In this document: positions 4,440-59,946 of the stretch, piece after piece
Layout: each line of letters begins with the position of its first letter
Position numbering within the stretch: position 1 is the stretch's first letter
Assembly: GCF_002246015.1 (NCBI RefSeq)
Contig: NZ_NOLJ01000007.1
Span: 248,487 to 312,486 of the forward strand
Length of the DNA stretch: 64,000 nucleotides
Origin: Nostoc sp. 'Peltigera membranacea cyanobiont' 210A
Lineage (GTDB): Bacteria; Cyanobacteriota; Cyanobacteriia; Cyanobacteriales; Nostocaceae
Direction of reading: 5' to 3'
Position numbers and translations under genes: made by a program
The notes under the pieces: generated by a model
The model's input: the letters and a program-made list of their open reading frames with translations, nothing else
What the model was told of the DNA's origin: nothing
Databases searched by the model: none

Positions 4440-4443
4440 CGGT

Positions 4444-5031: not shown

Positions 5032-5080
5032 ACCTGCGGAATGGGGGTTACGTGAATAGCAAAGGCTCTTTCATATTCAA

Positions 5081-5944: not shown

Positions 5945-5968
5945 ATTTTTAACAATATTAATTAGTGA

Positions 5969-6748: not shown

Positions 6749-6898
6749 TAAAAATCACCTCTAAGATTAATCATTAGTTTGTAATGAGCGGCTCCAGCCT
6801 TTTTTGCGAATACTTAACGTTTTCTAGAGAACAAAACAGGACTAAAGTCCTTACTACAAGCTAATTTTAAATAATTAAATTTATTCTTGCATACTTGC

Positions 6899-9807: not shown

Positions 9808-9859
9808 GTCATTAGTCAATTGTCCTTTGTCCTTTGTCATTTATTTAAAGTTACTAACC

Positions 9860-9957
9860 AATGACCAATGACCAATGACCAATGACTAATGACCAATGAC
9901 CAATGACTAATGACCAATGACCAATGACCAATGACTAATGACTAATGACTAATGACC
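9860..9957 (+). repeat. Heptanucleotide tandem repeat (STRR)
   Basis: About 14 contiguous copies of a 7-base unit AATGACC/AATGACT run right up to the ctaC start, so that the last unit supplies an in-frame ATG at 9952. Heptamer STRRs are typical of heterocystous cyanobacteria. Every unit carries ATGA, an overlapping start and stop, in successive frames. The opposite-sense relative GTCATTGGTCATTTGTCATT lies after gatA near 17360-17379. Confidence 0.9.
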
Positions 9958-20606: not shown

Positions 20607-23605
20607 CTATCATCGTTAATGATGTTTACTGTAGCCGAACTGTTAGTAATTGTGGAATTTGGCGCTCCAGTTATGAGGCTGGGGTTACTCAGGATAACAG
20701 TAATGTCTTCATTGAGTTCAAATATGTTGTCACCCAAAACATTAGCTGTAATTGTCTTTGTGGTTTCCCCAACAGCGAAGCTTAAAGTCCCAGATGCAGC
20801 AGTTCCTCCACCCGTAACCTGAATATTGCTATAGTCACTGCCAAAAGTTGCCGCACCACCAAAAGCATAATCTACGGTGCTAGCCACGCCAATACCACCA
20901 CTGCGAGTAGCCGTGAAGGTAATAGCTTGAGTACCGCTATTACCTTCAGTTAAAGTTGAAGTGGGAGTGGAAATTGCATATTGAATCGCATCATTAGCAG
21001 CAATAGTTAGAGTAGTTTCAGTTATTGTCCCCAAATCAGCCCCTGTTAGCGTGCCGAAGTTGAGTACAACTGTTTCTGCATTCTCAGGTAAATCGTCTGG
21101 GTTAATAGTAAAAGTAATTAGCTGTGTTAAATTTGCACCTGTTGCCCCAGCAGTAAAGGAGATGGTAGTGGGGGAAAAAGTGTAATCGTTGCCACTAGTC
21201 GCCGTACTACTGTTTTTGACGACAATAGGAATTGTGACAGCCGTTTCAGGAGAGGCATTTAAGGTAACAGAAATAGTTACTGTAGTGGCGGTACTATCTT
21301 CTGTTGTATTGTACGTAGCAGCACCAAAGTTGACTTTTGGAAGCACATATTCAAATGCTCCAATGTCAATTCTGCCGCTTTCAATACGGTTAAAATCTGT
21401 GCCGCGTTGGTCGGTATTTAAGCTACCATTGTAAGCCGGATCGCCAGCATTCCTGGCAGGACTGTTAAAGTATAGAGCATGAGTTTGTGTAGAACCACCG
21501 TAATCTCCTAACGGTTTGAGTCCGGGGTTGGGGTTAATAATATCTGTACCCGTACCCAAAGTCCCCGATATTTTACCAGCAATTTTGCCAATCAGGTTGT
21601 AAGCATTACCATTGAAGTTGCTACCATAGACATCGGGTGCATTATTACTTAAATCAATATTGCCAGCAATGATGCTATTGCTGATGCTCCAAGTACCAGC
21701 AGATCTATAAATGCCGCCACCATTACCTGTGTTATTGTTATCGCTATCAGCGGTGTTGCCAAATATAGTGCTATTACTTACGGTGCCACCGCCAGAATAG
21801 ATACCGCCGCCGTTGACTTTTACGGTGTTACTGGAAACAGTGCTATTAGTAAGTGTGGTAATGGTGCTGTAGATGCCGCCGCCATTAGTGTTCGCTGTGT
21901 TGCCAGAAATAGTGCTATTACTAGCTGTGACACTACTAGTGCTGTAGATGCCGCCGCCATTAGTGTTCGCTGTGTTGCCAGAAATAGTGCTATTACTAGC
22001 TGTGACACTACTAGTGCTGTAGATGCCTCCTCCAAGGGTCGCTATGTTGCCAGAAAGATTACTATTGCTGACTGTGACACTACTAGTGCTGTAAATGCCG
22101 CCACCGTTGCTACTGCCTGCATTTCCCTCAGTTATCTTCAATCCATCAATTGATAGCGAGGCACTAGCATTAAAAATACGGGAAGTATTGTTACCACTAA
22201 TGGTGAGTTTATTCGCCCCAGTTCCTTGAATGATCACTCCTTCAGTGATATTCAATTCCCCAGAAGTGAGGGTAATAGTGTCGGGGGTAGCATCACCGAA
22301 TATCCCAGTCGGATCAAAGATAATTGTCTCAATCCCTGGATCGTTATTGGCATTGATAAGAGCTTGCCTTAACGAGCCAGTACCACTGTCATTGATGTTA
22401 GTTACTATGTAGGTGGTGTTCTCTACTTTGATAGATACATCGTCAATGGCTAAACCATGATCGTTGCTTCCATCATCTATATCTTCCCAACGCAATATAA
22501 TCTCTTCACCGTTAGCAATTGGGGTCGCTAGATTAAATATTACAGGCGTTATAACAACTCGATTGGCAATCAAATTCCCATTCAGGGCACCCACGGTTGC
22601 AGTTGCAATTGGCCCGGTGAAATCTAGCGAGGTGACAGGCGTCCATGTTCCTGTTGTTAAACTTGTGATAGTTGACCCAGTTTGATAACTGAATTTCAAC
22701 TGTTGCTGTGATGTATTACCACCATTACGCCATTGTTCACCTGTGTAACTTACTTGCAACTTAGTAATTGCTAAACCTGTGTTGTTTTGGAGGCGCAACC
22801 CATAATAAATAGTTCCTGTAGTACCAGAAGCTAGAGAACCAAGTGCCCGGTCTGGGTTATTAGCACTACCAAAACTGTACAATCCACCTGTGTTATTACT
22901 GCCAGTACCAGGGCTGTAAGTTGTTCTCGTAGAATACCAGCCCGAAATAGTTGAATCATTAACCCAAGCTGGTGTTCCAGAAATAGCTAATGAGTTAAAG
23001 TTTTGAGAGTATGTGCCAGTAAAAGTAGCTGGCAAAATCGATTGGTAAGCCTGTATTACTTCAGGTCGAAATGCCAGGGAAGCCTCAATTTTCCCTGTCT
23101 TCACTTCTAAATCCCAGTCGCCACCTAAAGCTGCACTTCCGGTTTTGTCAGTGGAAGCGGCAACATCTGCTCCAGTAATTTGGCTAATCTGCTGTACAAA
23201 TTTTGTGCCTTCACCGCTGGCTACATCACAGCCATAAAGTAGGATGTCAGCTTTATCAGTTAAAGCACTTGCCCACTTTTGTAACTGATTTTTGTAGCTA
23301 TCCAGATTGCTAAGGTTGAAGTTGATTGACCCTAGTTGCAAACTCCCCACACTTCCGTGGGAAACAATGTGAATTGATTGAACTGAATTGGATTGACGTT
23401 TTGCTAGAAAGTCGGTGATTTGTGCTAACCCGTCTCTATTGGCATCAAGAATAACAACTTCACTACCGAGTGTGATACCAGCCATTAAGCTTTGGTAATC
23501 TATAACTTTTGGATCTATAAAAACAATATTTGTGCTTGCATCTATTAATTTTATAGTAGACTTGTTTCTGGTTTTAGGATGATAATTTTCTGGCTGTTTT
23601 ATCAT
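18212..23605 (-). CDS. Giant DUF4347 / beta-helix / Calx-beta repeat protein
   Basis: This is a 1797-residue, probably extracellular adhesin-like protein. Order: DUF4347 domain about 27-190 (FIDPKVIDYQSLMAG, VSHGSVGSLQLG, DILLYGCDVASGE), a lectin-like or choice-of-anchor region about 195-395, a beta-helix region about 398-740 beginning NINDSGTGSLRQALINAN with GGGIYSTSSVT repeats, then nine Calx-beta units to the C-terminus. The last seven are regular 114-residue copies ending in INDD-type motifs and carrying Asp/Glu Ca-binding positions. There is no classical signal peptide; DUF4347 proteins in cyanobacteria typically have this large repeat-rich architecture. AAGGAA precedes the ATG at 23605. 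The function is inferred as Ca-dependent adhesion or surface structure. It stands alone. Confidence 0.88.
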   Translation of the reverse strand: MIKQPENYHPKTRNKSTIKLIDASTNIVFIDPKVIDYQSLMAGITLGSEVVILDANRDGLAQITDFLAKRQSNSVQSIHIVSHGSVGSLQLGSINFNLSNLDSYKNQLQKWASALTDKADILLYGCDVASGEGTKFVQQISQITGADVAASTDKTGSAALGGDWDLEVKTGKIEASLAFRPEVIQAYQSILPATFTGTYSQNFNSLAISGTPAWVNDSTISGWYSTRTTYSPGTGSNNTGGLYSFGSANNPDRALGSLASGTTGTIYYGLRLQNNTGLAITKLQVSYTGEQWRNGGNTSQQQLKFSYQTGSTITSLTTGTWTPVTSLDFTGPIATATVGALNGNLIANRVVITPVIFNLATPIANGEEIILRWEDIDDGSNDHGLAIDDVSIKVENTTYIVTNINDSGTGSLRQALINANNDPGIETIIFDPTGIFGDATPDTITLTSGELNITEGVIIQGTGANKLTISGNNTSRIFNASASLSIDGLKITEGNAGSSNGGGIYSTSSVTVSNSNLSGNIATLGGGIYSTSSVTASNSTISGNTANTNGGGIYSTSSVTASNSTISGNTANTNGGGIYSTITTLTNSTVSSNTVKVNGGGIYSGGGTVSNSTIFGNTADSDNNNTGNGGGIYRSAGTWSISNSIIAGNIDLSNNAPDVYGSNFNGNAYNLIGKIAGKISGTLGTGTDIINPNPGLKPLGDYGGSTQTHALYFNSPARNAGDPAYNGSLNTDQRGTDFNRIESGRIDIGAFEYVLPKVNFGAATYNTTEDSTATTVTISVTLNASPETAVTIPIVVKNSSTATSGNDYTFSPTTISFTAGATGANLTQLITFTINPDDLPENAETVVLNFGTLTGADLGTITETTLTIAANDAIQYAISTPTSTLTEGNSGTQAITFTATRSGGIGVASTVDYAFGGAATFGSDYSNIQVTGGGTAASGTLSFAVGETTKTITANVLGDNIFELNEDITVILSNPSLITGAPNSTITNSSATVNIINDDSQPTISISDVSVTEGNTGTTTNANFTISLSNPSSQQVTVNYNTSDGTANATDSDYNSALGTITFNPGETSKTLSIGVLGDNKFETDETFSVNLLGATNATIADSLAVATIINDDNQPTISISDVSVSEGNTGTTTNANFIVTLSNPSYQQVTVNYNTSDGTAQVADSDYNSASGTITFNPGETSKVISIGVIGDNKAETNETFSVNLSAATNAAIADNLAVSTIIDDDNQPTISISDVSVTEGNTATTTNANFTISLSNPSSQQITVNYNTSDGTAQVADSDYNSALGTITFNPGETSKVISIGVIGDNQTETDETFSVNLSAATNAAIADSLGVATIINDDNQPTITISDVSVTEDNTGTTTNANFTISLSNPSSQQVTVNYNTSDSTANAADSDYNSALGTITFNPGETSKTLSIGVLGDNKFETDETFSVNLLGATNAAIADSLGVGTIINDDNQPTISISDVSIAEGNIGTTSNANFTISLSNPSYQQVTVNYNTSDGTAQIADSDYNSDSGTIIFAPGETSKTLSIGVIGDNQSEANETFSVNLSGATNAAIADSLGVATIIDDDNPTTVSISDVSIAEGNTGTTTNANFIVTLSAPSLQQVTVNYNTSDGTAKTSDSDYNSASGTIVFNPGETTKTLGIGVIGDNKAETNETFSVNLFGATNTTITDSLGVATITNDDAPPTISIADVLVKEGTTGMITNANFVVTLSNEFYQRVIVNYSTSDGTAKESDSDYNFGLGTIIFDYGETSKVISIGVRGDNKVEPNETFFVNIYGAANATFNNNQGVGTIKNDD
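21864..22013 (-). repeat. Two identical 75-bp tandem repeats in the beta-helix region
   Basis: Units starting at 21864 and 21939 are identical by eye over 75 bases and each encodes one 25-residue coil (GGGIYSTSSVTASNSTISGN plus TANTN). A third, diverged unit follows at 22014. Confidence 0.85.
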
Positions 23606-31066: not shown

Positions 31067-31187
31067 AGTTTAAAAATTGGGCTTTGGGTATTTGGTATTT
31101 GGCATGAGGCATGGGGCATTGGGCATTGGTTATTTCCCTCCTGCTCCTCTGCTTCTCTGCCCCCGTGCCCTCATCTTCGCTCTTCAG

Positions 31188-38999: not shown

Positions 39000-40541
39000 A
39001 TGTCCAAAGCTACTGTTATTGGATTGGGAAAGTCCGGTGTTGCTGCGGCGAGATTGTTGAAACGGGAAGGTTGGGAGGTAGAGCTGAGCGATCGCAACAC
39101 CTCCAAAACCCTCCTAGAACAACAACAAGAACTCGCTGCCGAGCAAATAACCGTTAAACTAGGACAATCCCTAGAATTGAATGGTGCTAATTTACCCCAA
39201 TTAATAGTCGTTAGTCCTGGCGTGCCTTGGGATATTCCCGTATTAGTTGAGGCACGCCAACTAGGTATTGAAACCATTGGCGAAATGGAACTCGCTTGGC
39301 GAAATTTGCGATCGCTACCTTGGGTAGGAATTACCGGTACTAACGGCAAAACTACTACCACAGCTTTAATTGCTGCCATATTCCAAGCAGCAGAATTAAA
39401 TGCACCCGCCTGCGGTAATATTGGCTACGCCGCTTGTGAAGTTGCCCTATCTTACAGGGGGAGAGGAGCAGGGGAAGCAGGGGGGGCAGGGGAGGCAGGG
39501 GGAGCATTTGATAATTCCTCACTCCTAACTCCTAACTCCTCACTCCTAACTCCTCACTCCTCACTCGATTGGGTGATTGCGGAAGTTAGCAGCTATCAAA
39601 TAGAATCTTCGAGTTCTCTTGCTCCCCGGATCGGTGTTTGGACGACTTTCACACCGGATCACCTCAGTCGCCATCAGACTTTAGAGAACTATTACAACAT
39701 CAAAGCCAAGTTATTACGTCAGTCGGAGTTGCAAGTATTCAATGGCGATGATGCCTACTTGAGCCAGTTAGGTTTAAGTGCTTGGCCTGATGCCTATTGG
39801 ACAAGTGTCAGAGGAAAAGATTTTCTGATTAGCGAAAAAGGCTTTTATATCGAAGACGGCTGGGTTGTGGAAAAATTGACTGCAACCTCGACACCAGAAC
39901 CGATTGTGAAAGTATCTAGTTTGCGAATGGTGGGAGAACATAACCAGCAAAATCTGTTGATGGCAGTAGCAACAGCAAGATTAGCGGGAATTAATCGTGA
40001 TGCGATCGCGCGTGCAGTTCGGGAATTTCCTGGTGTTGCCCATCGTTTGGAGCATATCTGCACATGGGAAGGGATTGATTTTATTAACGACAGCAAAGCC
40101 ACCAACTATGATGCGGCTGAAGTAGGTTTAGCATCTGTTAACAGTCCAGCGATTTTAATTGCTGGTGGAGAAGCCAAAGCAGGTGATGATACTGCTTGGC
40201 TAGCACAAATTCAAACCAAAGCTGCTGCTGTGTTATTGATTGGTTCTGCTGCACCCGCATTTGCCAAACGTCTGCGAGAGGTGGGGTATGATAACTACCA
40301 TATTGTGGAAACTATGGAAAGGGCAGTTCCCAAGTCGGCAGAATTAGCCAAGCAGTATCAAGCGCCTGTAGTGTTGCTATCTCCAGCTTGTGCGAGTTTC
40401 GACCAGTACCCAAATTTTGAGGTGCGGGGCGATCGTTTCCGTCATCTATGTCTTGCTTGGGCAGGAGGTTGGAAACCCGCCAGAGTAGAACTTCCAGAAC
40501 TTGAAAACTCTAGTCAAGAGTCCATAGTTCAAAGTCGATAA
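39000..40541 (+). CDS. murD: UDP-N-acetylmuramoylalanine-D-glutamate ligase
   Basis: MurD adds D-glutamate to UDP-MurNAc-L-Ala in the cytoplasm during peptidoglycan synthesis. It has 513 residues, longer than the usual approximately 450. The N-terminal Rossmann domain begins [18 protein letters not shown]; the ATP site is [14 protein letters not shown] (110-123); the central domain has AEVSSYQIE (194-202), [10 protein letters not shown] and the EHNQQN-type motif. The C-terminal domain has [12 protein letters not shown] and [12 protein letters not shown]. The extra length is a low-complexity insertion at about residues 153-189 encoded by short tandem repeats. The frame is intact and the catalytic motifs are preserved, so it is probably functional. 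Confidence 0.96.
39456..39566 (+). repeat. Short tandem repeats inserted in frame in murD
   Basis: A G-rich tract of GGGGAAGCAGG-type units (about 39456-39507) is followed by seven-base CTCCTAA/CTCCTCA units (about 39518-39565). Both are intergenic STRR types in this genome. Here they encode [17 protein letters not shown] and [17 protein letters not shown] inside the MurD central domain. Confidence 0.85.
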
Positions 40542-48643: not shown

Positions 48644-50257
48644 TTACTCAGAAATGTTAATCGAACTTTCAACTTGAGAAGTAGCCAATGTTGGTGCAGA
48701 GAAAATACGCGAGTACAGACTTGATGGTTGTTGATGAGCAACAACTGGTAAAACTTGACGAGCATGAGCGGCTAATTCTACTGCTTTCACATCATACGTC
48801 TGCGTTGCCAACTTGGGATAAAACCCGATTCCGATGATTGGCAGTAGCAAACAAGCAGTAATAAATATTTCGCGGGGTTTAACATCAGATATTACAGCAT
48901 CCAAGTGCAACTCTTTATTTTGCTCACCGTAGAACACTTGACGCAGCATCGACAGTAAATAAATCGGTGTCAAAATCACGCCAACTGCTGACAACAGCAC
49001 GACTACAACTTTGAAACTGGAACTGTAAACATCACTGCTGGCGATACCCAGAAACACCATCAACTCACCCACAAAACCACTCATTCCGGGTAAGGCGAGA
49101 GAAGCCATTGAACCAATGGTAAACAGAGCAAAGGTTTTGGGCATTACCTTGGCCATACCGCCCATTTTATCCATCATCAAGGTGTGGGTGCGATCGTAAG
49201 TCACGCCAGACAGGAAGAACAAGCTAGCAGCAATCAAGCCGTGGGAAACCATCTGTAATACTGCACCGCTGATACCAAGCTCTGTGTAAGAGGCAATCCC
49301 AATCAGCACAAACCCCATGTGGGCAATTGAAGAGTAAGCCAAACGGCGTTTGAGATTGGTTTGAGCAAAGGCACAGCAAGCACCGTAAACAATATTAACC
49401 ACACCCAAAACTGCTAATACTGGAGCAAAAGTCACATGTGCATTGGGCAACATTTCCACATTGAAGCGGATGAGAGCATAACCACCCATTTTTAACAACA
49501 CACCAGCCAAAATCATCGAACCTGGTGCTGATGCTTCACCGTGAGCATCAGGTAGCCAAGTGTGTAAAGGGAAAATTGGTAACTTCACACCGAAGGCTAT
49601 TAAGAAACCTGCATAAACTAGCAATTCTAAGGTTTTGGGATATTCTTTCATTCCTAGAGTCGCCATGTCGAAAGTGATGGTATCTCCAGAGAATGCCATT
49701 GCAAAACCAGCAATCAAGATAAATATTGATGCAGCAGCGGTGTAAAGAATGAATTTGGTAGCGGCATAACGGCGGTTTTGTCCTCCCCAAATGGAAATCA
49801 GCAGGTAAACCGGCACTAACTCGATTTCCCACATTAGGAAGAACAACAGCAAATCTTGGGCAACAAATACGCCAAGTTGGGCGCTGTACATCGCTAACAT
49901 CAAACCATAAAATAATCGCGGCTTGGTGGTAACTTTCCAAGCCGCGAATATTGCGAGGGTATTTATTAAGCCTGTCAGAAGTAGTAAGGGCATCGATAAA
50001 CCATCAACCCCCACAGCCCAATGCAAACCTAACTGCGGTATCCAAGGATAGTTTTCTACGAGTTGGAGTGTTGAACTCTGGAAGTCGTAGTTATACCAAA
50101 AGGCATAAATCATCAGTGCAAAGTCGGCAAAAGCAACTCCCAGACCATACCAGCGGACAGTTCTACCTTCCTTGTCTGGGATTAGGGGGATGGCTAAGGT
50201 AGCCACCAAGGGTAAGAGGATTATGGCTGTTAGCCAGGGAAATTCAATAGCATTCAT
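48644..50257 (-). CDS. ndhD: NAD(P)H-quinone oxidoreductase (NDH-1) subunit 4
   Basis: This 537-residue antiporter-like subunit of cyanobacterial NDH-1 has about 14 transmembrane helices in the thylakoid membrane, used in respiration and cyclic electron flow. Key residues are Glu in [20 protein letters not shown], Lys in [21 protein letters not shown] and Lys in [15 protein letters not shown]. The sequence resembles the NdhD1/D2 (respiratory NDH-1L) group more than the CO2-uptake D3/D4 group, but this is judged by eye. The start is ATG 50257 ([15 protein letters not shown]); a TTG at 50269 is unlikely. No ndhF partner is adjacent. Confidence 0.95.
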
Positions 50258-50828
50258 CACTTCTGACAATCAATTTGGCTTATCGCTTTTAATTTAATTG
50301 TATTAAGGAATCAATACTTTTGTAAACATTCTTTAACTCTAGAAAATTAAATTTTTGATATAGATAAGAACATATACTCATTGAATGTCAAATTATCAGG
50401 ATAAATAAGAATAAATACTTATCTGTTTTTGACGACTCCATTCTAAATGTAAACTTTTGCAACGTCAACTAAAGCCACCGTTACAATACAGTTATATTTC
50501 CTGCTTCAGCCCCATTTTCAGGGCTATCTAGTCTATGCTTCTAAGTTGAGTCATAGATTTAACTCCCAACCCCTTCCCTACTAACGTTGTGCAGGGTGGA
50601 GAAAAATGGATAACTAACAACTATGATCTTGTCTAATCAATTGCAGCAAGTCTCAGACTACTATAGGCGCATCTGGGGATGAAGACATGAATTATGGTTG
50701 GTATAAAAAATTAGTGAGATGGCGTAGGCGTAGCCCGTCGTAGACATCGTACAGCCATTAATATCCGAAGTCTACGATCGTCTACATTTACGAACTTTGA
50801 CGTAAACTTTCTTGATCTCGAAGATTTA
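50258..50828. other. ndhD upstream region
   Basis: AT-rich, with no gene. A dispersed repeat GGCGTAGGCGTAGCCCGTCG lies near 50719-50738. The ndhD promoter should lie in the first 200 bases. Confidence 0.45.
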
Positions 50829-51061
50829 TCATACTAATTCAGTGTCTTCCACTGCCAAAAACTCATGTAATTCTTCTATAGTGAGTGAAGTATGGTAAAT
50901 ATTAGATTCGATTTTATAGACTGAACAAAAGAGGCGATCGCTTCGTTAAGTTGCTTGATTGCTGCTTCTTGATTTAACCCTTATCCTACCAGCCCATTTT
51001 CTAAACATAAAGCAACCCAATAACCAGCACTCTTTTGTAAAACTGTTGTGTAGAAGTCCAT
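50829..51061 (-). pseudogene. Decayed HicB-like antitoxin gene
   Basis: From the ATG at 51061 the minus strand reads MDFYTTVLQKSAGYWVALCL and ENGLVG, then TAA, then GLNQEAAIKQLNEAIASFVQ in the same frame. After a frameshift near 50900-50910 it reads KIESNIYHTSLTIEELHEFL ending AVEDTELV at 50829. The composite matches a HicB-like family (YWVALCLENG-VGQG---EAI--LKEAI). One nonsense codon and one frameshift make it non-functional. It lies about 50 bases downstream of the YgiT/DUF4258 pair. Confidence 0.72.
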
Positions 51062-51114
51062 AAATGCTTTTTAATAATAGAATACCTGAAGCAACAGTTA
51101 ATTTTGGCAATTAT

Positions 51115-51345
51115 TCATGATCCAAAACTAGCCACTTCTACAGGACGTTCCACAGCTAAGTTTTTCCGGTTAGTTTTAATTTGTTGAATTCTGTGAAGGG
51201 TTTCAGCAGTTAAATAACTTTCGCCGCAATGAGTACAGGTTATTACTGGAATGTTTTCTATTACTAGCAGGTCTTTACCCTTGCCGTAAGTTCTAGTAAT
51301 TTGGCGGACTTTTACACCTTCGCTTCCACAAATATCACACAGCAT
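51115..51345 (-). CDS. YgiT-type zinc-finger antitoxin (MqsA N-domain-like)
   Basis: This 76-residue protein has two CxxC pairs, CDICG (residues 3-7) and CTHCGESYLT (about 37-46), forming the YgiT/MqsA zinc domain. The segments TYGKGKDLLVIENIPVITC and TAETLHRIQQIKTNRKN are typical. Such small proteins pair with DUF4258 or MqsR-like toxins. It follows the DUF4258 gene by 17 bases on the same strand, the common toxin-first order. It lacks the MqsA HTH domain. Confidence 0.88.
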   Translation of the reverse strand: MLCDICGSEGVKVRQITRTYGKGKDLLVIENIPVITCTHCGESYLTAETLHRIQQIKTNRKNLAVERPVEVASFGS

Positions 51346-51362
51346 TTGGCGCTTTCCTGTTA

Positions 51363-51644
51363 TTAGGGTATGTATACTGTAATGATAACAAGTTTTCCAG
51401 TTGGACTTAGCTTGGCAATTATTTCGACTTCCCCTGCATCAAGAGTTAAACCTCTAATGCGATATTTAGATTCTGCTGTCACTTTATCTTTTTGACGTTC
51501 CAGTATTTCGCCTGTAAAGATGCCTTCTTCAATGTCATAGATTGTTAGATTGTCATCGCTCATTTCTTCTTCAGCGTGTAGCGTCATTAAATACTGACGA
51601 GAATAAACTTTATCCCGCATTCGTTGCAAAATTTCATCAAACAA
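51363..51644 (-). CDS. DUF4258 putative toxin
   Basis: This 93-residue DUF4258 protein has a helical N-terminus with QYLMTLHAEEEMSDDNLTIY, DIEEGIFTGEILERQ, then strands SKYRIRGLTLDAGEVEII and KLVIITVYIP. The conserved His-Ala-x-x-E-M and Arg residues resemble RelE/BrnT-like ribonuclease folds, so toxin activity is likely but unproven. First gene of a two-gene operon with the YgiT antitoxin. Confidence 0.85.
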   Translation of the reverse strand: MFDEILQRMRDKVYSRQYLMTLHAEEEMSDDNLTIYDIEEGIFTGEILERQKDKVTAESKYRIRGLTLDAGEVEIIAKLSPTGKLVIITVYIP

Positions 51645-51872
51645 GGTGGTAATCTCAGACGAAGTTAGACTTTAACAGTTTACAGCGATCGCACTTTGAG
51701 GTTAATCAAAAAGACAATTACACCTTTGTTTTACTCCCATATAGTAAGTTTAAAAACCTAGTATCTATACTTATCAGTAGAATTATATTATATTATGTTA
51801 AGCCTAAGCTAGAATTAATACTTGGTTGTTTGTAAATTTTATCTCTGTTTAAAACTTTAGAAGAAGGTATAA

Positions 51873-52172
51873 ATGATGGACACGATTCCAATTTTAGTGA
51901 GCCTACCCGACAAAGACGAAGAAGTAAAAGGCATTTTTTCTCTTGATGCAGAAGTAGTTTTACGCGATATTCCCACAGAATTACTTCGAGATAACTTAAA
52001 CAAGTTATGCCAAGGAGTAGGTACTTTGCTTAATGATATTAAGAAGGTTGGTGGCTTTCGGCTCAAAGAAGTCACAGTTCAAGTTGAGGTGAGTGCTGAA
52101 GGCGGTGTAGAGCTAATTGGTACAGCTAAGGTAGGTGGCAAAGGGGCAATTACTCTAACTTTTGCGGAGTAG
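51873..52172 (+). CDS. Small Pepco-like (peptidase co-occurring) protein
   Basis: This 99-residue acidic protein has no membrane segment. Its features are the N-terminal strand DTIPILVSLP, a helix around LLRDNLNKLCQGVGTLLNDI, and a C-terminal Gly-rich beta segment GGFRLKEVTVQVEVSAEGGV then GKGAITLTF. This architecture resembles the Pepco domain that co-occurs with caspase or trypsin genes in predicted bacterial conflict systems. The TAG stop lies 3 bases before the caspase gene ATG, whose ribosome site (GGAG) is inside this frame, so the two are translationally coupled. It could be a protease substrate, inhibitor or sensor. AAGG precedes the ATG. Family naming is from memory of the domain pattern. 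Confidence 0.7.
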   Translation: MMDTIPILVSLPDKDEEVKGIFSLDAEVVLRDIPTELLRDNLNKLCQGVGTLLNDIKKVGGFRLKEVTVQVEVSAEGGVELIGTAKVGGKGAITLTFAE

Positions 52173-52175
52173 TAA

Positions 52176-55100
52176 ATGAAAAAACGTCGAGCGCTACTGA
52201 TTGGAGTTCCTGAATACGAAAGTGATGCTATTACCAACCTACCTATTGTCTGTCGAGATATAGAAAACCTCCACGCCTCTTTAGAAAAATCTGGCTTTAC
52301 TATCCACTCGCTAGGTACAGATGGCATTTCACAAACTGGACGTAGTAAATTATTACAAGCCTTACGGCGGGAATGCAAGGAGGCGCAAGGAGTAGAGACA
52401 CTGCTCCTTTATTTCTCAGGACATGGAATGCATTGCAAAGGTAAGGATTACCTCATCCCATCCGATGCAGTGTTAGATGACGCTGAGTATGTTGAAGAAT
52501 ATCTGGTAACTACAGATATAGGTGACATCATCGATCAGTCAGGTGCAGAGACTATTATCTTTTTCATTGATGCTTGCCGTGAGGGTGTTAAGTTAGGCTT
52601 CAAAAATACTTATCTTGTTGGTTGGAGCAAAGGTGATCGGCGACAAGCTTCACGGCGTAGTTTTGTAATGGTGTTTGCCTGTGGGCCTGGTCAGGTAAGT
52701 CAGTATGTAGGAGGTGAAGATGGGTTTAGTCTTTTCTCTAAAGCTCTGGCTGAGGTACTAGATCCACAACACTTCGCCTGTACTTTAAAAGAAGTTCTCG
52801 ACGAAACACAAGCAAGACTAAACATCTTAATAGTAGAACAAGGTAAGCAGCCACAGAAAATCTACTACGCTCATGAAAGTGCTGTTGAAGATAATACCTT
52901 ATCACAGATAATTTGTGAGAGCGTTACTGCGGCAACAGGTAAAGGTAAAGCTAGTAATCCCTGGTCTGAAGCTGCATTACAGTCACCACTTTGGAAAAAT
53001 AAAGGCACTGAGGCAAATTTAATTGTTGCACAACTCCAGCAGCAAGTAGCTAAGATATTAGCTGCTTGTTGGCAAGAGTGGGAAGCAGCAATTAATAGTT
53101 TTCCCCAAGATCAGTGGCGAGATGAGGCACTGCCAATCAGAGTGCTAGAGGCGCTAGATTTGTTAGTGTTTCGCTCCGATCCCCCCATTGAACTGACAGA
53201 TGCTGAAACAGCGTTAGTAGTAACTGCACCATTTGTGCGTGAGGCAGTACTGGCTAGTGGGTTTACACAAGCAGCTAAGGTAAATCCACTGTCATTAGAG
53301 GGAACTAAACCGGAAACTGTTATTCGGAGTGCCATAGATAAAGTACATCAGAGTAATCCTCGTCTCGTGCGTAAAGCCCAACGTCTCCAAGATCAGGATC
53401 GTACAGAGGATAGAGATGCGGTAATGGCATGGCTACTACACCGATGCTTGCTGAAAACACTTGAGCTTTGGATGCCAGAATCAGAAGGTGGCTCTCTTTC
53501 TAGTAACTTGCTTAAATCTTTGGAAAGTGTGAGTCAGTGTAGCTCACGTCTAAGCAAGGAGACATTGAAACCAAAGCGTTTGTTGGAACTTGCCCGTTGC
53601 TTGTTTGCAGACGTTGAGCGCATAGATCGTGATGACCGTCCTGAAGCTCTACAGTCGAGACTAACAGTGGGTGGATATTCTGAAGAGCAGCAAATCCGAG
53701 AAAAAATGGTGGGTTATCTACTGAAGTTGGCAGGATTGCTAGCTATTGATATCCGCACTCTCTCTGATGTTTTGATAGACCATATCGGTTTGTCTGACCC
53801 CCTGACACCTAACGATGTAAGCTCTACAATAGCACAGGCTCGCTGGAATCCTTCTGGAAGGGGGCGTACACTGCGTGTTACTTGTCATCATCCAGCAGTG
53901 GATTTAGTTATACGAGAACACATTGAGCAGGCTAATTTGGTTCTCGCTCACATTTTTCGGCAAGTAGAAGAGAAAAAGGATATTTATATACCTATTGCTC
54001 AAGTTAGTTGTTCTTTAATTGATGAGTTAATAGACACATGCTTACAAGAAACAAATACACACAATTGTTTAGATTTACTTAACGAGCTTAATAAGATTGC
54101 TGGTATATGGCTGGAATTTGAGCGAATAAGTTTATTGACAAAATATGGATTAAGGCAAACAGTTTTTACTAAAGAAATTATTCAACTCATCCAACATAAT
54201 GATAAAGGAATTTTACTTTTACCTGGGGATAGCTTATTGTTAGCTCCGCAAGAACCGTTTTTTTATAAAATACTACTAGCGTCAAAGAAAATGAATAAAA
54301 CAATAGAGGAGCTTCTTAGACGCATAAAGCAGTTTTCTCCAAAATTAGGATTTAAGATACCAAATATTGACTCAGAATGCATCAAGTCTTTAACTCTTAC
54401 AGAAAATGATTTCCGCCTACTGTTCCAAGACCCGGATGAAAATGAGTCTTGGTTGGATGAAAGTGATCTTTGGTTAAAAGAACAGGTATCAGCAATGCAT
54501 TTAGTCTTGGGGGCTGCAAAATTGAATCAATCAGTAGCAACTACTTATCAGCAATTAGAAAAATTTGTCTGTTTAGGTTTGCAATTACCACAATTAGACC
54601 TGCCAGGCTTAGAGGATTTAATTCCAATAAAAGATGATGTATGGCTGCTGTCCCAAAAACTGAACGGAAGAAGCCCTTGGTTAAAGACGCAGGTATCAGC
54701 AATGCATTTAGTCTTGGGGGCTGCAAAATTGAATAAATCAGTAGCAGTTACTTATCAGCAATTAGAAAAATTTGTCTGTTTAGGTTTGCAATTACCACAA
54801 TTAGACCCGCCAGCCTTAGAGGATTTAATTCCAACAGAAGATGATTTACTTCTACTATCCCAAGACCTCGATGGAGAAAGCCCTTGGTTAGAAGCACAAG
54901 TATCAGCAATGCATCTAGTCCTGGGGGCAGCAGAATTTAATCAATCAGTAGCAGCTACTTATCAGCAATTAGAAAAATTTGTCTGTTTAGGTTTGCAATT
55001 ACCACAATTAGACCTGCCAGCCTTAGAGAATTTAATTCCAACAGAAGATGATTTACTTCTGCTATCCCAAGACCTGAATAGAAGAAGCCTTTGGTTAGAA

Positions 55101-56075
55101 GCGCAGGTATCAGCAATGCATCTAGTCTTGGGGGCAGAGCAATTGAATCAATCAGTAGCAGTTACTTATCAGCAATTAGAAAAATTTGTTTGTTTAGGTT
55201 TGCAATTACCACAACTAGACCTGCCAGCCTTAGAGAATTTAATTCCAACAGAAGATGATTTACTTCTGCTATCCCAAGACTTGGATGGAAGAAGACCTTG
55301 GTTAGAAGCGCAGGTATCAGCAATGCATTTAGTCTTGGGGGCTGCAAAATTGAATAAATCAGTAGCAGCTACTTATCAGCGATTAGAAAAATTTGTCTGT
55401 TTAGGTTTGCAATTACCACAATTAGACCTGCCAGCCTTAGAGAATTTAATTCCAACAGAAGATGATTTACTTCTGCTATCCCAAAACTTAGATGGAGAAA
55501 GCCCTTGGTTAGAAGCACAAGTATCAGCGATGCATCTAGTCTTGGGGGCAGCAGAATTGAATCAATCAGTAGAAAAAATTTATATTCGTTTCCAAGCATT
55601 TACTTCTCTGCTAAATTTAAAACTTCCACTAGTAAACTTAAAATTACTAAAAAAGTGGAATGTCAAAATTAGAGATATACTAATTTTATCTCAAAATTTA
55701 AATGGAATAAAACCTTGGGTTGAAGATAGTTTTTCTCTGATTCATGTAATTCAATTTTCAGCTCGACTGAATGAACCTATACTAGAAACACTCAGGCATT
55801 TACTAAAATTCTCTGCTTTAGGATTTAGCGTACCTGAAATTGATGTAGAGACATTAGGTAATTTCACACCAACTTTAAATGATTTAGTAGCCGTTTCACA
55901 GGATTTGGATGGACTAGCACCTTGGATAGAGGGTATTATTCCTGCTGATCATATTGTTCATGCTGCAAAAAAATTAGATGAGCCAGTAGAAGGAACGCTA
56001 GAACGGTTACGTCATTTTACGCCTATACTCAGTTTAATCCTACCAACTGGAGAACCAAATTCCTGGCAAATTTGA
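52176..56075 (+). CDS. Caspase-family protease with 69-residue C-terminal repeat array
   Basis: This is a 1299-residue protein. The N-terminal caspase/metacaspase (peptidase C14) domain spans about 1-235: RRALLIGVPEYESDAITNLP, then LLLYFSGHGMHCKGKDYLIP with catalytic His83 and TIIFFIDACREG with catalytic Cys134. Residues about 240-690 form a mostly helical linker of unknown type (RKAQRLQDQDRTEDRDAVMA and RVTCHHPAVDLVIREHIEQA segments). From about 690 to the end are repeats of 69 residues centred on VSAMHLVLGAAKLNQSV and LEKFVCLGLQLPQL, ending LLLLSQDLDG.SPWLEA. Five (771-1115) are nearly identical and flanking ones are diverged. They faintly recall winged-helix-like repeats of conflict proteins. 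No signal peptide or membrane helix is seen. The likely role is sensing followed by proteolysis, as in abortive defence. Confidence 0.85.
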   Translation: MKKRRALLIGVPEYESDAITNLPIVCRDIENLHASLEKSGFTIHSLGTDGISQTGRSKLLQALRRECKEAQGVETLLLYFSGHGMHCKGKDYLIPSDAVLDDAEYVEEYLVTTDIGDIIDQSGAETIIFFIDACREGVKLGFKNTYLVGWSKGDRRQASRRSFVMVFACGPGQVSQYVGGEDGFSLFSKALAEVLDPQHFACTLKEVLDETQARLNILIVEQGKQPQKIYYAHESAVEDNTLSQIICESVTAATGKGKASNPWSEAALQSPLWKNKGTEANLIVAQLQQQVAKILAACWQEWEAAINSFPQDQWRDEALPIRVLEALDLLVFRSDPPIELTDAETALVVTAPFVREAVLASGFTQAAKVNPLSLEGTKPETVIRSAIDKVHQSNPRLVRKAQRLQDQDRTEDRDAVMAWLLHRCLLKTLELWMPESEGGSLSSNLLKSLESVSQCSSRLSKETLKPKRLLELARCLFADVERIDRDDRPEALQSRLTVGGYSEEQQIREKMVGYLLKLAGLLAIDIRTLSDVLIDHIGLSDPLTPNDVSSTIAQARWNPSGRGRTLRVTCHHPAVDLVIREHIEQANLVLAHIFRQVEEKKDIYIPIAQVSCSLIDELIDTCLQETNTHNCLDLLNELNKIAGIWLEFERISLLTKYGLRQTVFTKEIIQLIQHNDKGILLLPGDSLLLAPQEPFFYKILLASKKMNKTIEELLRRIKQFSPKLGFKIPNIDSECIKSLTLTENDFRLLFQDPDENESWLDESDLWLKEQVSAMHLVLGAAKLNQSVATTYQQLEKFVCLGLQLPQLDLPGLEDLIPIKDDVWLLSQKLNGRSPWLKTQVSAMHLVLGAAKLNKSVAVTYQQLEKFVCLGLQLPQLDPPALEDLIPTEDDLLLLSQDLDGESPWLEAQVSAMHLVLGAAEFNQSVAATYQQLEKFVCLGLQLPQLDLPALENLIPTEDDLLLLSQDLNRRSLWLEAQVSAMHLVLGAEQLNQSVAVTYQQLEKFVCLGLQLPQLDLPALENLIPTEDDLLLLSQDLDGRRPWLEAQVSAMHLVLGAAKLNKSVAATYQRLEKFVCLGLQLPQLDLPALENLIPTEDDLLLLSQNLDGESPWLEAQVSAMHLVLGAAELNQSVEKIYIRFQAFTSLLNLKLPLVNLKLLKKWNVKIRDILILSQNLNGIKPWVEDSFSLIHVIQFSARLNEPILETLRHLLKFSALGFSVPEIDVETLGNFTPTLNDLVAVSQDLDGLAPWIEGIIPADHIVHAAKKLDEPVEGTLERLRHFTPILSLILPTGEPNSWQI
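54486..55570 (+). repeat. 207-bp tandem repeats in the caspase gene
   Basis: The motif GTATCAGC(A/G)ATGCAT occurs at 54486, 54693, 54900, 55107, 55314 and 55521, exactly 207 bases apart. Five complete units are nearly identical; the sixth diverges about 50 bases in (after GAATCAATCAGTAG). The period is a multiple of three, so copy-number change keeps the frame. Confidence 0.95.
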
Positions 56076-56260
56076 TATTGAGAATTATTATCCAATGACA
56101 GTTTAAAAATTTCTTTAGTCTCAAACTTAACTTTGTCTCAAGTTTAGACAGGGGTAGATATATAAAAATCCTTGCCCAAGAGGTATTTGAAAATGAAAGG
56201 ATACATCCTTTTCATGGCAATAACGCAATACAGTTCAGATAAGCCCAAAACCCTCATGTA

Positions 56261-56280
56261 GAGACGCGATTTATCGCGTC
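56261..56280. repeat. Dispersed palindrome GAGACGCGAT-TTATCGCGTC
   Basis: Near-perfect palindrome related to the 24-bp element at 17409-17432. It lies between the convergent caspase and acnB genes. Confidence 0.6.
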
Positions 56281-56298
56281 CTCAAAATATTTAATGTC

Positions 56299-56323
56299 AA
56301 GGTGAGCTAAAAAAGCCCACCTT
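56299..56323 (-). terminator. Hairpin downstream of acnB
   Basis: AAGGTGAGC (56299-56307) pairs with GCCCACCTT (56315-56323) with one mismatch. It lies 9 bases past the acnB stop on the minus strand. The T-rich stretch is in the loop rather than after the stem. Confidence 0.45.
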
Positions 56324-56331
56324 AATTTAGA

Positions 56332-58962
56332 TTAGACCAACAAAGCTTGTTCTTCTTTAGAAATCACTCGCCCTTCATCCTCAAAACCGGCGATTTGATC
56401 AAAGTTCAAATACCGATACAAATCATCGGCAAAAGGCTCAATTCTACTCGCCACAATATCCAGATATTCCTGCACTGTCGGAAGTCGTCCCAGCAGCGCA
56501 CAAACTGCGGCTAATTCTGCTGAACCAAGATACACTCGCGCATCTTTACCCATGCGATTATTGAAGTTACGGGTAGACGTAGAAAACACTGTTGTGCCAT
56601 CAGCAACTCGCGCCTGATTACCCATACACAAACTGCATCCTGGCATTTCTGTACGCGCACCCGCAGCCCCAAAAATGCTGTATACACCTTCTTCTTTTAA
56701 TTGGTGTTCATCCATGCGCGTTGGTGGTGCTATCCACAGGCGAGTTTTTACTTCACCTGCGCCTTCCAAAACTTTCGCTGTTGCCCGATAATGACCAATA
56801 TTCGTCATACAAGAACCGAGGAATACTTCTTGTACTGGATCGTTAGCAACTTCCGATAATAATTTAACATTATCGGGGTCATTGGGAGCAGCAACAATTG
56901 GCTCTTTGATTTCGTTCAAATCAATTTCAATTATTTCAGCATACTCCGCATCGGCATCGCCTTCTAATAACACGGGATTTGCTAACCATTCTTCCATCTT
57001 TGCCACACGGCGCAACATGGTACGCGGATCATGATAGCCTCGTGCTATCATATTTTTCAGCAACGCTACGTTAGAACGCAGATATTCCGAAATTGTCTCT
57101 ACACTCAGCTTAATTGTGCATCCGGCACAAGAACGTTCCGCACTAGCATCGGTGAGTTCAAAGGCTTGTTCAACTTTTAAATCTGGCAAACCTTCTATTT
57201 CCAGAATTCGCCCGGAGAAAACGTTTTTCTTATTTTGCTTCTCTGCTGTCAGCAAACCTTTTTGAATTGCCACGTAGGGAATGGCATTCACGACATCCCG
57301 TAGGGTGATACCTGGTTGCAATTCACCTTTGAATCTTACCAAAACTGACTCTGGCATATCTAAAGGCATGACACCCAAGGCGGCTGCAAAGGCTACCAAG
57401 CCAGAACCGGCGGGGAAGGAAATACCCAAGGGGAAGCGGGTGTGAGAGTCGCCGCCAGTTCCTACGGTATCGGGTAGCAGCATCCGGTTTAACCAAGAGT
57501 GGATAATACCATCACCGGGACGGAGGGCGACACCGCCACGAGAAGCAAAGAAGTCGGGGAGTTCGTGATGGGTTTGGATGTCTACTGGTTTGGGATAAGC
57601 TGCTGTGTGGCAGAAACTTTGTATCACTAAGTCTGCACTGAAACCAAGACAAGCGAGTTCTGTCAATTCGTCGCGGGTCATGGGGCCTGTGGTATCTTGA
57701 GAACCAACGGTAGTAATGATGGGTTCGCAAGATGTGCCGGGACGCACACCAGGTAATCCGCAAGCTTTACCTACCATTTTCTGTGCCAAGCTGTAGCCTT
57801 TGCCTGTATCAAAGGCTTGCTGGGGACGGGTAAAGACTGTGCTGTGTTCTAAACCAAGTGCAAGACGGGTTTTGTCGGTGAGGGTACGTCCGATAAGTAG
57901 GGGGATGCGTCCACCTGCGCGAACTTCATCGAGGATGGTGTCAGGTTTGAGGGCAAAGGTGGAAATGACTTCGCCTGCTTCGTTTGTGATTTCGCCTTTG
58001 TAGGGATGGATGGTAATTACCATACCGGTTTCTAGTTTGGTGACATCGCACTGAATAGGCAAAGCACCGGCATCTTCTGCTGTGTTAAAGAAGATTGGCG
58101 CGATCGCACCACCTAAAACATAACCCCCAGCGCGTTTGTTTGGCACAAAAGGTATATTATTTCCTGTATGCCACAATACGGAGTTGATGGCAGATTTACG
58201 CGAGGAACCTGTACCAACTACATCCCCCACGTAAGCTACAGGATGCCCTTTTTTCTTCAACTCGGCAATGGTTGCCAAGCTTCCCGGTTGCCGTGACTCT
58301 AACATCACTAAGGCGTGTAAGGGAATATCTGGGCGAGTTGTGGCGCTTTGGGCGGGGGATAAGTCGTCGGTGTTGGTTTCGCCAGGAACTTTAAAAACGG
58401 TGACAGTAATCGCTTCTGGAACTGTAGGGCGGAGGGTAAACCATTCAGCTTCCGCCCAAGAGTCAATCACCCGCTTGGCGAAAGGATTGGTTTTAGACAA
58501 CTCTAAAACATCGTGGTAAGCGTCGTACACTAAGAGTATTTTGCTTAAGGCGTTGGCGGCGTAGGCGGAAATGGGTTCCTTTCCTTGTCCACCCATTACC
58601 AGAGGTGTTTCGGATGAGTCGGAGAGGGATACAGTGGGCAATTGTAGCAAATCGATTAAAGATTGCACATTGTAACCACCGATCATTGTGCCCAGCAATT
58701 GCACCGCTTCGATGGGCGCAATCAACGGACTGGTGATTTCTTCCTTGGCAATGGCGGTAAGAAATCCAGCTTTGACATAAGCTGCTGGATCGACACCAGG
58801 AGAAACGCGATCGCTCAATAAATGTAATAATATCTCCTCTTGACCCTTGGGCGGATTTTTCAGTAATTCACATAATTCTGATGTTTGCTTCGCATCCAAT
58901 GGTAAAGGGGGAATACCGAGTGCTGCTCTTTCAGCAACGTGTTTACGATATTGTTCTAGCAT
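56332..58962 (-). CDS. acnB: Bifunctional aconitate hydratase 2 / 2-methylisocitrate dehydratase
   Basis: This 876-residue AcnB interconverts citrate and isocitrate. The N-terminus [20 protein letters not shown] matches E. coli AcnB, followed by the HEAT-like domain, a swivel domain ([30 protein letters not shown]) and the catalytic domains ([56 protein letters not shown]). The 4Fe-4S cysteines are visible in [11 protein letters not shown] and [12 protein letters not shown]. The start at 58962 is chosen because GGAG lies upstream; an ATG at 58977 is in frame but adds five non-homologous residues. It is monocistronic. Confidence 0.96.
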
Positions 58963-59274
58963 TTTTATGTTCTCCATTGGGATGTTCTATCTTTAATTAT
59001 GAAATATTTTTAGTCAATACTTGGCTATAAGAGTTTAGCTTACTTTTATTACTGAAAGCCTTAGTGGTAATCGGTTGTTTGCAGGTTTTTTATACTGAAA
59101 TTTTGAAAAGTATGAGGCGAATAGAATTCGCTACTACATAAACAAAGTCCACCTCCGTGGACTAAGAGTAAATCAAGAATTTTTAACCCACGTAGGTGGG
59201 TTTTGTATTTCGACTTCGCTCAACACAAGTCTGTATAGCCGCGACTTCTAGTCGCAAGGTGTAGCAATAATGAA
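58963..59274. other. acnB upstream region with double hairpin
   Basis: No gene is present. Two perfect 7-bp hairpins, AGTCCAC/GTGGACT at 59146-59163 and AACCCAC/GTGGGTT at 59185-59202, are followed by TTTGTATTTCGACTTCGCTC and a SGTCGCGACTTCTAGTCGC-like tail. They resemble elements near 26305 and 33731. The hairpins belong to a dispersed repeat; the second also resembles a plus-strand terminator. Confidence 0.55.
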
Positions 59275-59590
59275 TTAGATTGATTGTTGGTTTAACCAAG
59301 TTTCTAAATCAGCAACATTAGAAAAGTCTAGCAATGCCTCTCCTAAATTCTCTAATTGTTCGATCGATAAACCTTTAATTTGCCCGATTAATGATGCATC
59401 AATTTCACCAATACGGCGATTTAGTAGACGCAGTATTAAGTCTTCTTTTCCTTCTTGCCTTCCTTCTTGCCTTCCTTCTTGCCTGCCCTCTTGCCTTCCT
59501 TCTTGCCTTCCCTCTTCTTTGGCTTGTTCTCTGTCTCTTTGATAAAGTGGCTCTAGTCGCATAATTAGCTCATTATCAATCGAAATGAAT
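59275..59590 (-). pseudogene. Duplicated C-terminal fragment of a DUF4351-type protein
   Basis: The frame gives NELIMRLEPLYQRDREQAKE followed by repeated EGRQ units, then KEDLILRLLNRRIGEIDASL and SIEQLENLGEALLDFS. This is the C-terminal DUF4351 portion of Rpn/DUF4351 family nuclease-like proteins. An ATG at 59562 could start a 95-residue product, but the N-terminal nuclease part is missing. It is a tandem copy (offset 316 bases) of the C-terminus of the adjacent interrupted gene. It differs by a few residues (FSNVAD versus FSSVAD) and in EGRQ copy number. Confidence 0.75.
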
Positions 59591-59946
59591 TTAGCTTGAT
59601 TGTTGGTTTAACCAAGTTTCTAAATCAGCAACACTAGAAAAATCTAGCAATGCCTCTCCTAAATTCTCTAATTGTTCAATCGATAAACCTTTAATTTGCC
59701 CGATTAATGATGCATCAATTTCACCAATACGACGATTTAGTAGACGCAGTATTAAGTCTTCTTTTCCTTCTTGCCTTCCTTCTTGCCTGCCCTCTTGTCT
59801 TCCTTCTTGCCTGCCCTCTTGCCTTCCCTCTTCTTTGGCTTGTTCTCTGTCTCTTTGATAAAGTGGTTCTAGTCGCATAATTAACTCCCTATCATCTGCT
59901 TCTAATTCTTGATTTACTCTCAAGTTTTCGCGCAAGTTGTAAACTA

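What the first reader, a model, noticed from the sequence alone, without database searches (positions are those of the whole stretch)
51873..56075. Pepco-like protein coupled to a caspase with a C-terminal repeat array: candidate protease-based defence module
Seen: a 99-residue protein with a Gly-rich beta C-terminus ends 3 bases before a 1299-residue protein with a caspase His83/Cys134 dyad, a large helical middle and at least eight 69-residue repeats. The neighbourhood is rich in toxin-antitoxin and IS remnants. Known: caspase-like proteases co-occur with small Pepco/Trypco proteins in predicted bacterial conflict systems. Inference: the repeats sense or bind a target, the small protein gates the protease, and activation could kill or arrest the cell.
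Basis: partly seen in the sequence, partly recalled or inferred. Interest (0 to 1): 0.85.

Follow-up and report, generated by a model that had tools for sequence, protein, structure and literature searches.

The report
Caspase immune receptor missing its ATPase
A cyanobacterium carries a two-gene locus, a small Pepco protein beside a caspase fused to a tandem-repeat array, that looks like a bacterial immune receptor, and unlike every relative found it lacks the Hsp90-type ATPase between protease and repeats, probably because its back half was swapped for another version.

Summary

New here: 25 of 25 other loci of the family carry an Hsp90/GHKL-type ATPase behind iHD-CE; the window copy alone lacks it. 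Its DNA matches the G006 orthologue at 90% up to base 53976, just ahead of the ATPase, then not again until acnB: the 3' half was exchanged and the ATPase lost in frame. The acnB site is a variable hotspot that holds GmrSD, TIR/NACHT/HEAT and other probable defence genes in sister genomes.

Best reading: an NLR-like predicted conflict locus in an ATPase-less allele; whether it still works is open, and Pepco 'gating' is untested. The domains are in Pfam already: a new variant of a known kind.

The parts
51873..52172 (+). Pepco protein, 99 aa
   Evidence: Pfam PF24393 68.9 bits, cut-off 27; next ORF upstream of the caspase or iHD-CE gene in 9 of 9 cyanobacterial loci with upstream DNA
52176..56075 (+). 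caspase-iHD-CE-repeat protein, 1299 aa, no Hsp90-type ATPase
   Evidence: ORF; Pfam; own profiles
52182..52850 (+). caspase domain (residues 3-225), dyad His83/Cys134
52962..53978 (+). iHD-CE domain (residues 263-601), mostly helical; profile match ends at position 328 of 349, against 346 in G006
   Evidence: PF24401 231.3 bits; G006; helices in the model
53976..53977 (.). junction where DNA homology to relatives ends, just ahead of the position of the Hsp90-type ATPase
   Evidence: blastn identity to G006 (89.9% over 50823-53976) and to G010 (91.1% over 53809-53976) stops at the same base; protein similarity to G253 resumes behind its ATPase at G253 residue 1023
53977..54371 (+). linker (about residues 601-732), remnant of the segment behind the ATPase; overlaps the first, divergent repeat unit
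   Evidence: 25% identity over 178 columns to G253 1023-1200; pLDDT under 50 for residues 598-733
54270..56060 (+). nine repeat units (residues 699-1295)
   Evidence: PF24410 8 stretches; nine units over 20 bits with own profile
54470..55572 (+). 207-bp tandem array, five near-identical 69-aa units
   Evidence: Tandem Repeats Finder, 5.3 copies, 90% matches; pooled pN/pS 0.50 between the five units
51115..51644 (-). toxin-antitoxin-like pair upstream (MqsA-like zinc protein, below cut-off, and DUF4258)
   Evidence: lies inside the 90%-identical block shared with G006
56332..58977 (-). acnB-type aconitase, flank of the variable site
   Evidence: 700 bp of it found in 53 of 53 genus genomes; name from reading the sequence, not from a family search

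Best explanation
The locus is a predicted bacterial conflict (probably anti-phage) receptor of a rare family whose complete form is Pepco + [caspase - iHD-CE - Hsp90-type ATPase - repeat array], laid out like an NLR: effector, then NTP switch, then repeat sensor. In the complete form the repeats would hold the protein off until they meet a ligand, the ATPase would drive the change of state or assembly, and the clustered caspase would cut targets; Pepco, translated just ahead of it, would be an adaptor, brake or first substrate. The window carries a chimeric allele: by recombination ending at base 53976 its 3' half was replaced and the ATPase was lost in frame, leaving the array joined to protease and helical domain by a flexible linker. 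My best guess is that it still senses and signals, by proximity of caspases on the array rather than through an ATP switch. Shown: domains, gene pairing, absence of the ATPase, junction, variable site. Inferred: the exchange event itself, receptor logic, Pepco's role, defence, and that this allele still works.
For: Domains. ATPase module in 25 of 25 other loci: 10 cyanobacterial, 2 Azospirillum, 13 actinobacterial; absent from the window alone. Two of the 25 are partial (G010; L153, whose iHD-CE part is only 28 residues and below the Pfam cut-off); 20 of the 25 were not used to build the module profile. The module is Hsp90-like: TRAP1/HtpG chains from E 2e-6, and near-invariant ELYQNALDACR, DNG.GM and NS.FGVG motifs. 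Junction. N-terminal part under purifying selection between the window and G006: dN/dS about 0.09 caspase, 0.14 Pepco, 0.19 residues 231-600. No excess of amino-acid change on the window branch: 15 against 11, p 0.56. Variable site: 3 of 53 genus genomes have iHD-CE, all three beside acnB; 30 of 53 flanks examined fall in 15 groups; Pfam on ORFs from 8 of them found GmrSD_N twice, NERD with UvrD, SLFN AlbA_2 and a HEAT array, and the G064 stretch gave NACHT/HEAT and TIR genes. An Azospirillum homologue overlaps an AAA gene followed by McrC. Precedent: in VcSduA a GHKL-domain point variant abolished phage defence (PMC12137116, passages); highly alike repeats mark fungal NLRs (PMC4986451, passages).
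Against: No activity data exist. The family is rare (over cut-off in 3 of 386 sampled genomes of the phylum and 5 of 388 of the order). PADLOC gives only weak hits, best a generic caspase at 34.8 bits. Of four cyanobacterial homologues whose neighbours I scanned in part, two (L098, L100) sit among metabolic genes and two gave nothing clearly defensive. Other flanks of the acnB site hold HAMP, protein-kinase and RTX-type genes. Pepco was not detected by my profile in 13 of 13 actinobacterial loci nor at one of two Azospirillum loci. The five near-identical units show pN/pS 0.50, not diversifying selection. The match to iHD-CE stops at profile position 328 of 349 (346 in G006), so the end of that domain may be clipped. 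The ATPase-less form is a single genome, so a decaying allele or an assembly fault is not excluded.
Confidence: 0.62

Rival explanations
1. Decaying allele: the recombination that removed the ATPase broke the receptor; the ORF is open only because the event is recent.
For: 1 of 26 loci lacks the module; the stretch behind the junction has pLDDT under 50; the iHD-CE match is clipped at its end; a relative (G322) has lost its caspase and split the gene while keeping Pepco, so decay happens in this family.
Against: 1299 codons without a stop; the loss keeps the frame; no excess of amino-acid change on the window branch (15 against 11, p 0.56), though numbers are small; five units amplified under mild constraint (pN/pS 0.50), which may predate the exchange.
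Confidence: 0.25
2. A stress or programmed-cell-death orthocaspase of the cyanobacterium, not an antiviral system.
For: Cyanobacterial orthocaspases are discussed as cell-death or stress proteases (PMC7475262, start of abstract and passages); two homologues lie among metabolic genes.
Against: Patchy presence (3 of 53 genus genomes), a site shared with restriction and TIR/NACHT genes, differing 3' halves and an McrBC-linked homologue fit a conflict role better than housekeeping.
Confidence: 0.2
3. Assembly artefact: two alleles or neighbouring loci were joined at 53976 and the ATPase is really present.
For: One genome only; near-identical 207-bp units are hard to assemble.
Against: The window lies inside a 572,702-base contig; the join keeps the frame and lands on the homologous segment behind the ATPase; searching the whole genome with the G006 module gave one hit, an HSP90 (HtpG-type) protein.
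Confidence: 0.08

Closest known systems
Pfam domain set PF24393 Pepco / PF24401 iHD-CE / PF24391 HD-CE / PF24410 wHTH-HSP90_Na-assoc with Peptidase_C14
   Same: All five families match over their cut-offs in the window; the name of PF24410 suggests that its association with Hsp90-type ATPases was known to its authors
   Different: The window protein lacks the Hsp90-type ATPase; none of eight literature searches listed a paper on the whole architecture (listings, and passages of some papers, seen)
EACC1-caspase two-gene systems (Kaur et al. 2020, PMC7159879, passages read)
   Same: Small constant 5' gene beside a gene with an N-terminal caspase and a variable C-terminal part
   Different: The small gene is Pepco, not EACC1; the NCBIfam EACC1-type caspase model scores 70.5 against a cut-off of 140
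NLR/STAND receptors (bNACHT, fungal NLRs)
   Same: Effector - switch - repeat layout in the family; highly alike repeats as in fungal NLRs (PMC4986451, passages)
   Different: No NACHT or NB-ARC among the Pfam hits; the switch position holds an Hsp90-type ATPase in relatives and nothing in the window
Canu caspase-nuclease systems (PMC12799240, passages read)
   Same: Antiphage caspase paired with partner genes; MALT1-like caspase
   Different: No nuclease gene recognised next door; the gene downstream is an acnB-type aconitase
VcSduA, GHKL-ATPase Shedu (PMC12137116, passages read)
   Same: GHKL ATPase proposed to control an effector in one chain
   Different: Nuclease rather than caspase; ATPase at the N-terminus; no repeat array mentioned in the passages read

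Membership tests
Pepco (PF24393) | profile match over the curated cut-off | tested here: met
   68.9 bits against 27; Trypco1 scores 14 against 24.6
Pepco (PF24393) | next to a peptidase gene | tested here: met
   caspase gene 3 bases downstream; 24 of 28 evaluable Pepco loci of the genus have a caspase match in the next ORF (30 of 45 matches looked at, 2 of the 30 cut off)
Pepco (PF24393) | structural match | tested here: inconclusive
   model mean pLDDT 64.8, pTM 0.49; no PDB match at E <= 0.001
caspase / orthocaspase (Peptidase_C14) | profile match and His-Cys dyad | tested here: met
   78.3 bits against 21.4; His83, Cys134
caspase / orthocaspase (Peptidase_C14) | caspase fold | tested here: met
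caspase / orthocaspase (Peptidase_C14) | protease activity | not testable with these tools
   needs purified protein
Pepco + caspase-iHD-CE-Hsp90-repeat family (defined here) | iHD-CE domain | tested here: met
   231.3 bits against 27
Pepco + caspase-iHD-CE-Hsp90-repeat family (defined here) | Hsp90-type ATPase behind iHD-CE | tested here: not met
   present in 25 of 25 other loci, absent in the window
Pepco + caspase-iHD-CE-Hsp90-repeat family (defined here) | C-terminal PF24410-type units | tested here: met
   8 stretches, nine units
EACC1-caspase system | EACC1-type caspase and an EACC1 gene | tested here: not met
   NF047832 70.5 against cut-off 140; small gene has no NCBIfam hit and is Pepco
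NLR / STAND receptor | NACHT or NB-ARC NTPase | tested here: not met
   no such Pfam hit in the 1299-aa protein at E <= 1
VMAP/iSTAND ternary systems | MoxR and vWA genes beside it | tested here: not met
   no MoxR or vWA family in the 12 nearby proteins scanned (2, 10); not every gene of the window was scanned
anti-phage defence system | protects against phage | not testable with these tools
   needs a phage challenge

The most novel reading that the evidence does not exclude
The family is an NLR-like immune receptor class in which an Hsp90-type ATPase stands where NACHT or NB-ARC stands in NLRs, its 3' sensor halves are exchanged between strains at a chromosomal immune hotspot, and the window shows that the ATP switch itself can be discarded, giving a caspase receptor that fires by repeat-driven clustering alone or borrows the cell's own HtpG as its switch.
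Probability: 0.27. Interest if true: 0.87.

Novelty: new variant of a known kind. Interest (0 to 1): 0.6.

Why it matters
It sets out, with relatives in cyanobacteria, actinobacteria and an alphaproteobacterial plasmid, a receptor layout joining an apoptosis-type protease, a chaperone-type ATPase and, in the cyanobacteria, a tandem array. The window allele against its G006 orthologue (89% identical over residues 1-601) is a natural experiment on whether the ATP switch is needed. If the pair is active, it makes a question that NLR biology usually asks with mutants directly testable: can repeats set off a caspase without an NTPase?

Tried and rejected
Trypco1 as the identity of the small protein: 14 bits, below cut-off. 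EACC1 system: rejected. Canu-like paired nuclease: none recognised next door. Repeats under diversifying selection: not supported, pN/pS 0.50. ATPase supplied in trans by a dedicated partner: the G006 module finds one other place in the genome, an HSP90/HtpG-type protein. Relaxed constraint on the window branch: no signal, 15 against 11, p 0.56. Donor of the exchanged 3' half: not found; among 217 genomes of the family only G006, G010 and G253 match besides the window's own, at 35-48% identity over that half. Phage carriage of the family: only htpG-annotated hits in 2 phage records and caspase-only hits in 3 viral contigs. Plasmids: 141 records match the window protein, none over 80% of it, best 45% (Azospirillum); 20 were listed, most covering only the caspase part. 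Structured RNA at 50000-57000: none at Rfam gathering scores. First genome-contig scan with the single protein confirmed no relative. Source paper of the Pepco/iHD-CE Pfam entries: not found. The VIA list covers model residues 1-561, so nothing is said about the fold of the repeats against the PDB.

Rows dropped before counts: L154-L158 (below the family cut-off, no match to my profiles); G299 (below cut-off, 3 stops inside, not examined); L114-L116 (caspase only). G010 and L153 are partial and are counted for the ATPase, not for Pepco. The Streptomyces plasmid hit L160 has the ATPase module without caspase or iHD-CE and is not counted. In one search the row for L159 used a coordinate that is no start codon and is left out of the gap count.

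Full report
Check of the observation. In 20 first-order Markov shuffles of the window the longest stop-free frame was 181 codons. Pfam names the small protein Pepco (68.9 bits, cut-off 27) and the large one Peptidase_C14 (residues 3-225), iHD-CE (263-601) and PF24410 in eight stretches. His83 and Cys134 lie in GHG and DAC motifs kept in all 17 rows that include the region, of 19 aligned. The 207-bp array at 54470-55572 has 5.3 copies with 90% matches. A profile of mine finds nine units over 20 bits from residue 699 to 1295; the five near-identical ones are 83-91% identical to their neighbours, the best pair 92%.

Relatives. The window lies in a genus of 53 held genomes. iHD-CE occurs in 3 of 53 genus genomes, is over the cut-off in 3 of 386 sampled genomes of the phylum and in 5 of 388 of the order; G000, G253 and G322 are in both of the last two. 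A second genome-contig scan, with an alignment, gave 18 loci: 5 cyanobacterial and 13 actinobacterial. A plasmid of Azospirillum brasilense carries two more. With profiles built here from caspase, iHD-CE, Hsp90 module, repeat and Pepco, all 25 distinct other loci carry the Hsp90 module and the window does not. The module profile was seeded from G006, G253, G010, G322 and one Azospirillum copy, so the other 20 loci are the independent test. L153 is a partial locus with 28 residues of iHD-CE, below the Pfam cut-off.

What the missing piece is. The module in G006 matches TRAP1 and HtpG chains (from E 2e-6; alignments begin about 40 residues into it, near G006 residue 640); Pfam HATPase_c is only a sub-threshold hit (14.7 bits against 26.4). 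Motifs resembling the Hsp90 N-terminal ATPase (ELYQNALDACR, DNG.GM, NS.FGVG; resemblance recalled) are nearly invariant in the alignment of 19 rows, the window being the exception.

The junction. DNA identity of the window to G006 runs at 89.9% from 50823 to 53976 and stops; it restarts at 56362 inside acnB at 95%. Identity to G010 stops at the same base, and between there and acnB G010 has one 58-bp match, in a repeat unit. In the protein this is residue 600/601, ahead of the ATPase; the iHD-CE match ends at profile position 328, against 346 in G006. Behind it the window resembles the segment that follows the ATPase in G253, a genome of another genus (25-27% from G253 residue 1023; 42% over 671 columns of the C-terminal part). 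The simplest account is that the 3' half was exchanged and the ATPase went with the exchange, in frame. No donor was found among 217 family genomes.

Selection. Between the window and G006 dN/dS is about 0.14 for Pepco, 0.09 for the caspase and 0.19 for residues 231-600. Changes assigned to the window branch do not exceed those of the G006 branch significantly (15 against 11, p 0.56), with small numbers. Among the five near-identical units pooled pN/pS is 0.50: not diversifying selection. G253 has its own near-identical run (two adjacent pairs at 85 and 91%) while the arrays of the two are 47-48% identical; five other cyanobacterial homologues have 5-6 units and G010 seven, with mean identities of 36-42%. 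So recent amplification probably happened more than once.

The Pepco pair. Pepco is the next ORF upstream in 9 of 9 cyanobacterial loci with upstream DNA (window, G006, G253, G322, L096, L098, L099, L100, L152), with a 3-base gap in 6 of the 7 measured (177 bases in G253). It lies beside one of two Azospirillum copies (71.3 bits) and was not detected by my profile in 13 of 13 actinobacterial loci. G322 has lost almost all of its caspase domain but keeps Pepco. Elsewhere in the genus 24 of 28 evaluable Pepco loci are followed by a caspase match (30 of 45 matches were looked at, 2 of them cut off).

The site. A 700-bp piece of acnB is present in 53 of 53 genus genomes. Thirty adjoining flanks were examined; grouping by shared DNA gives 15 groups (one flank is only 200 bp). 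Pfam on ORFs from eight of these flanks, plus two ORFs of the longer G064 stretch, found GmrSD_N twice, NERD with UvrD helicase, SLFN AlbA_2, a HEAT array with a PF24410 unit, and in G064 a chain with NACHT, HEAT repeats, a PF24410 unit and a TIR match slightly below cut-off (27.4 against 28), beside a separate TIR gene; HAMP, protein-kinase and RTX-type genes were found too. The flank group of L123 (GmrSD_N) has seven members by DNA similarity; only L123 was scanned. G006 and G064 share a gene on the far side that I read as UspA-like; it is not in the window. In Azospirillum the caspase gene overlaps an AAA gene followed by McrC. On the other hand L098 and L100 sit among metabolic genes, and the scanned neighbours of L096 and L099 gave no clear defence gene.

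How it may work. The family reads as effector, switch, sensor. VcSduA shows that a GHKL domain in a defence protein can be essential (E27A abolishes protection; PMC12137116, passages). Kaur et al. describe constant caspase modules with variable C-terminal parts and compare such systems to the apoptosome (PMC7159879, passages). Fungal NLRs have highly alike repeats with changing number (PMC4986451, passages). In the window the switch is gone; activity, if any, would rest on clustering by the array, on HtpG (present), or on an unknown partner. A decayed allele is the main rival.

Novelty. The domains are catalogued. None of eight literature searches listed a paper on Pepco with caspase-iHD-CE-Hsp90-repeat proteins; I saw listings, and passages of some papers, and the library lacks most subscription journals. 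A survey of 473 cyanobacterial orthocaspases lists HATPase_c in 4 and HisKA in 4 (PMC8283722, passages); whether any is of this family I could not tell. I rate it a new variant of a known kind.

Noticed in passing
L148 (G064) 2870-7086, minus strand: At the same acnB site a sister genome carries a chain with NACHT and HEAT parts, a TIR match just below cut-off and one PF24410 unit at its end, plus a separate TIR gene: the window's repeat unit also occurs singly in a NACHT protein.
   Followed up: partly
L092 6941-15241: Azospirillum brasilense plasmid: a complete caspase-iHD-CE-Hsp90 gene overlaps an AAA (McrB-like) gene followed by McrC; a second family member with its own Pepco lies about 13 kb away (L159).
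   Followed up: partly
L071/L097 (G322): The family copy has lost almost the whole caspase domain and is split by a frame change, yet Pepco upstream is intact.
   Followed up: partly
L037, L047, L063, L064: Four genus Pepco loci without a detected caspase in the next ORF; what they pair with is unknown.
   Followed up: no
L160 5647-7200: Streptomyces collinus plasmid: the same Hsp90-type module in a shorter protein without caspase or iHD-CE match, with a trypco2 gene about 3 kb away.
   Followed up: no
window 18212-23605: 1797-aa protein with DUF4347 and nine Calx-beta stretches, with a 342-bp tandem repeat array.
   Followed up: no
window 59269-59894: Tandem duplication of 316 bp, two copies 94% alike, overlapping a DUF4351 gene.
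   Followed up: no
window 9857-9958, 31076-31129, 39512-39566: Short arrays of 7-bp units.
   Followed up: no
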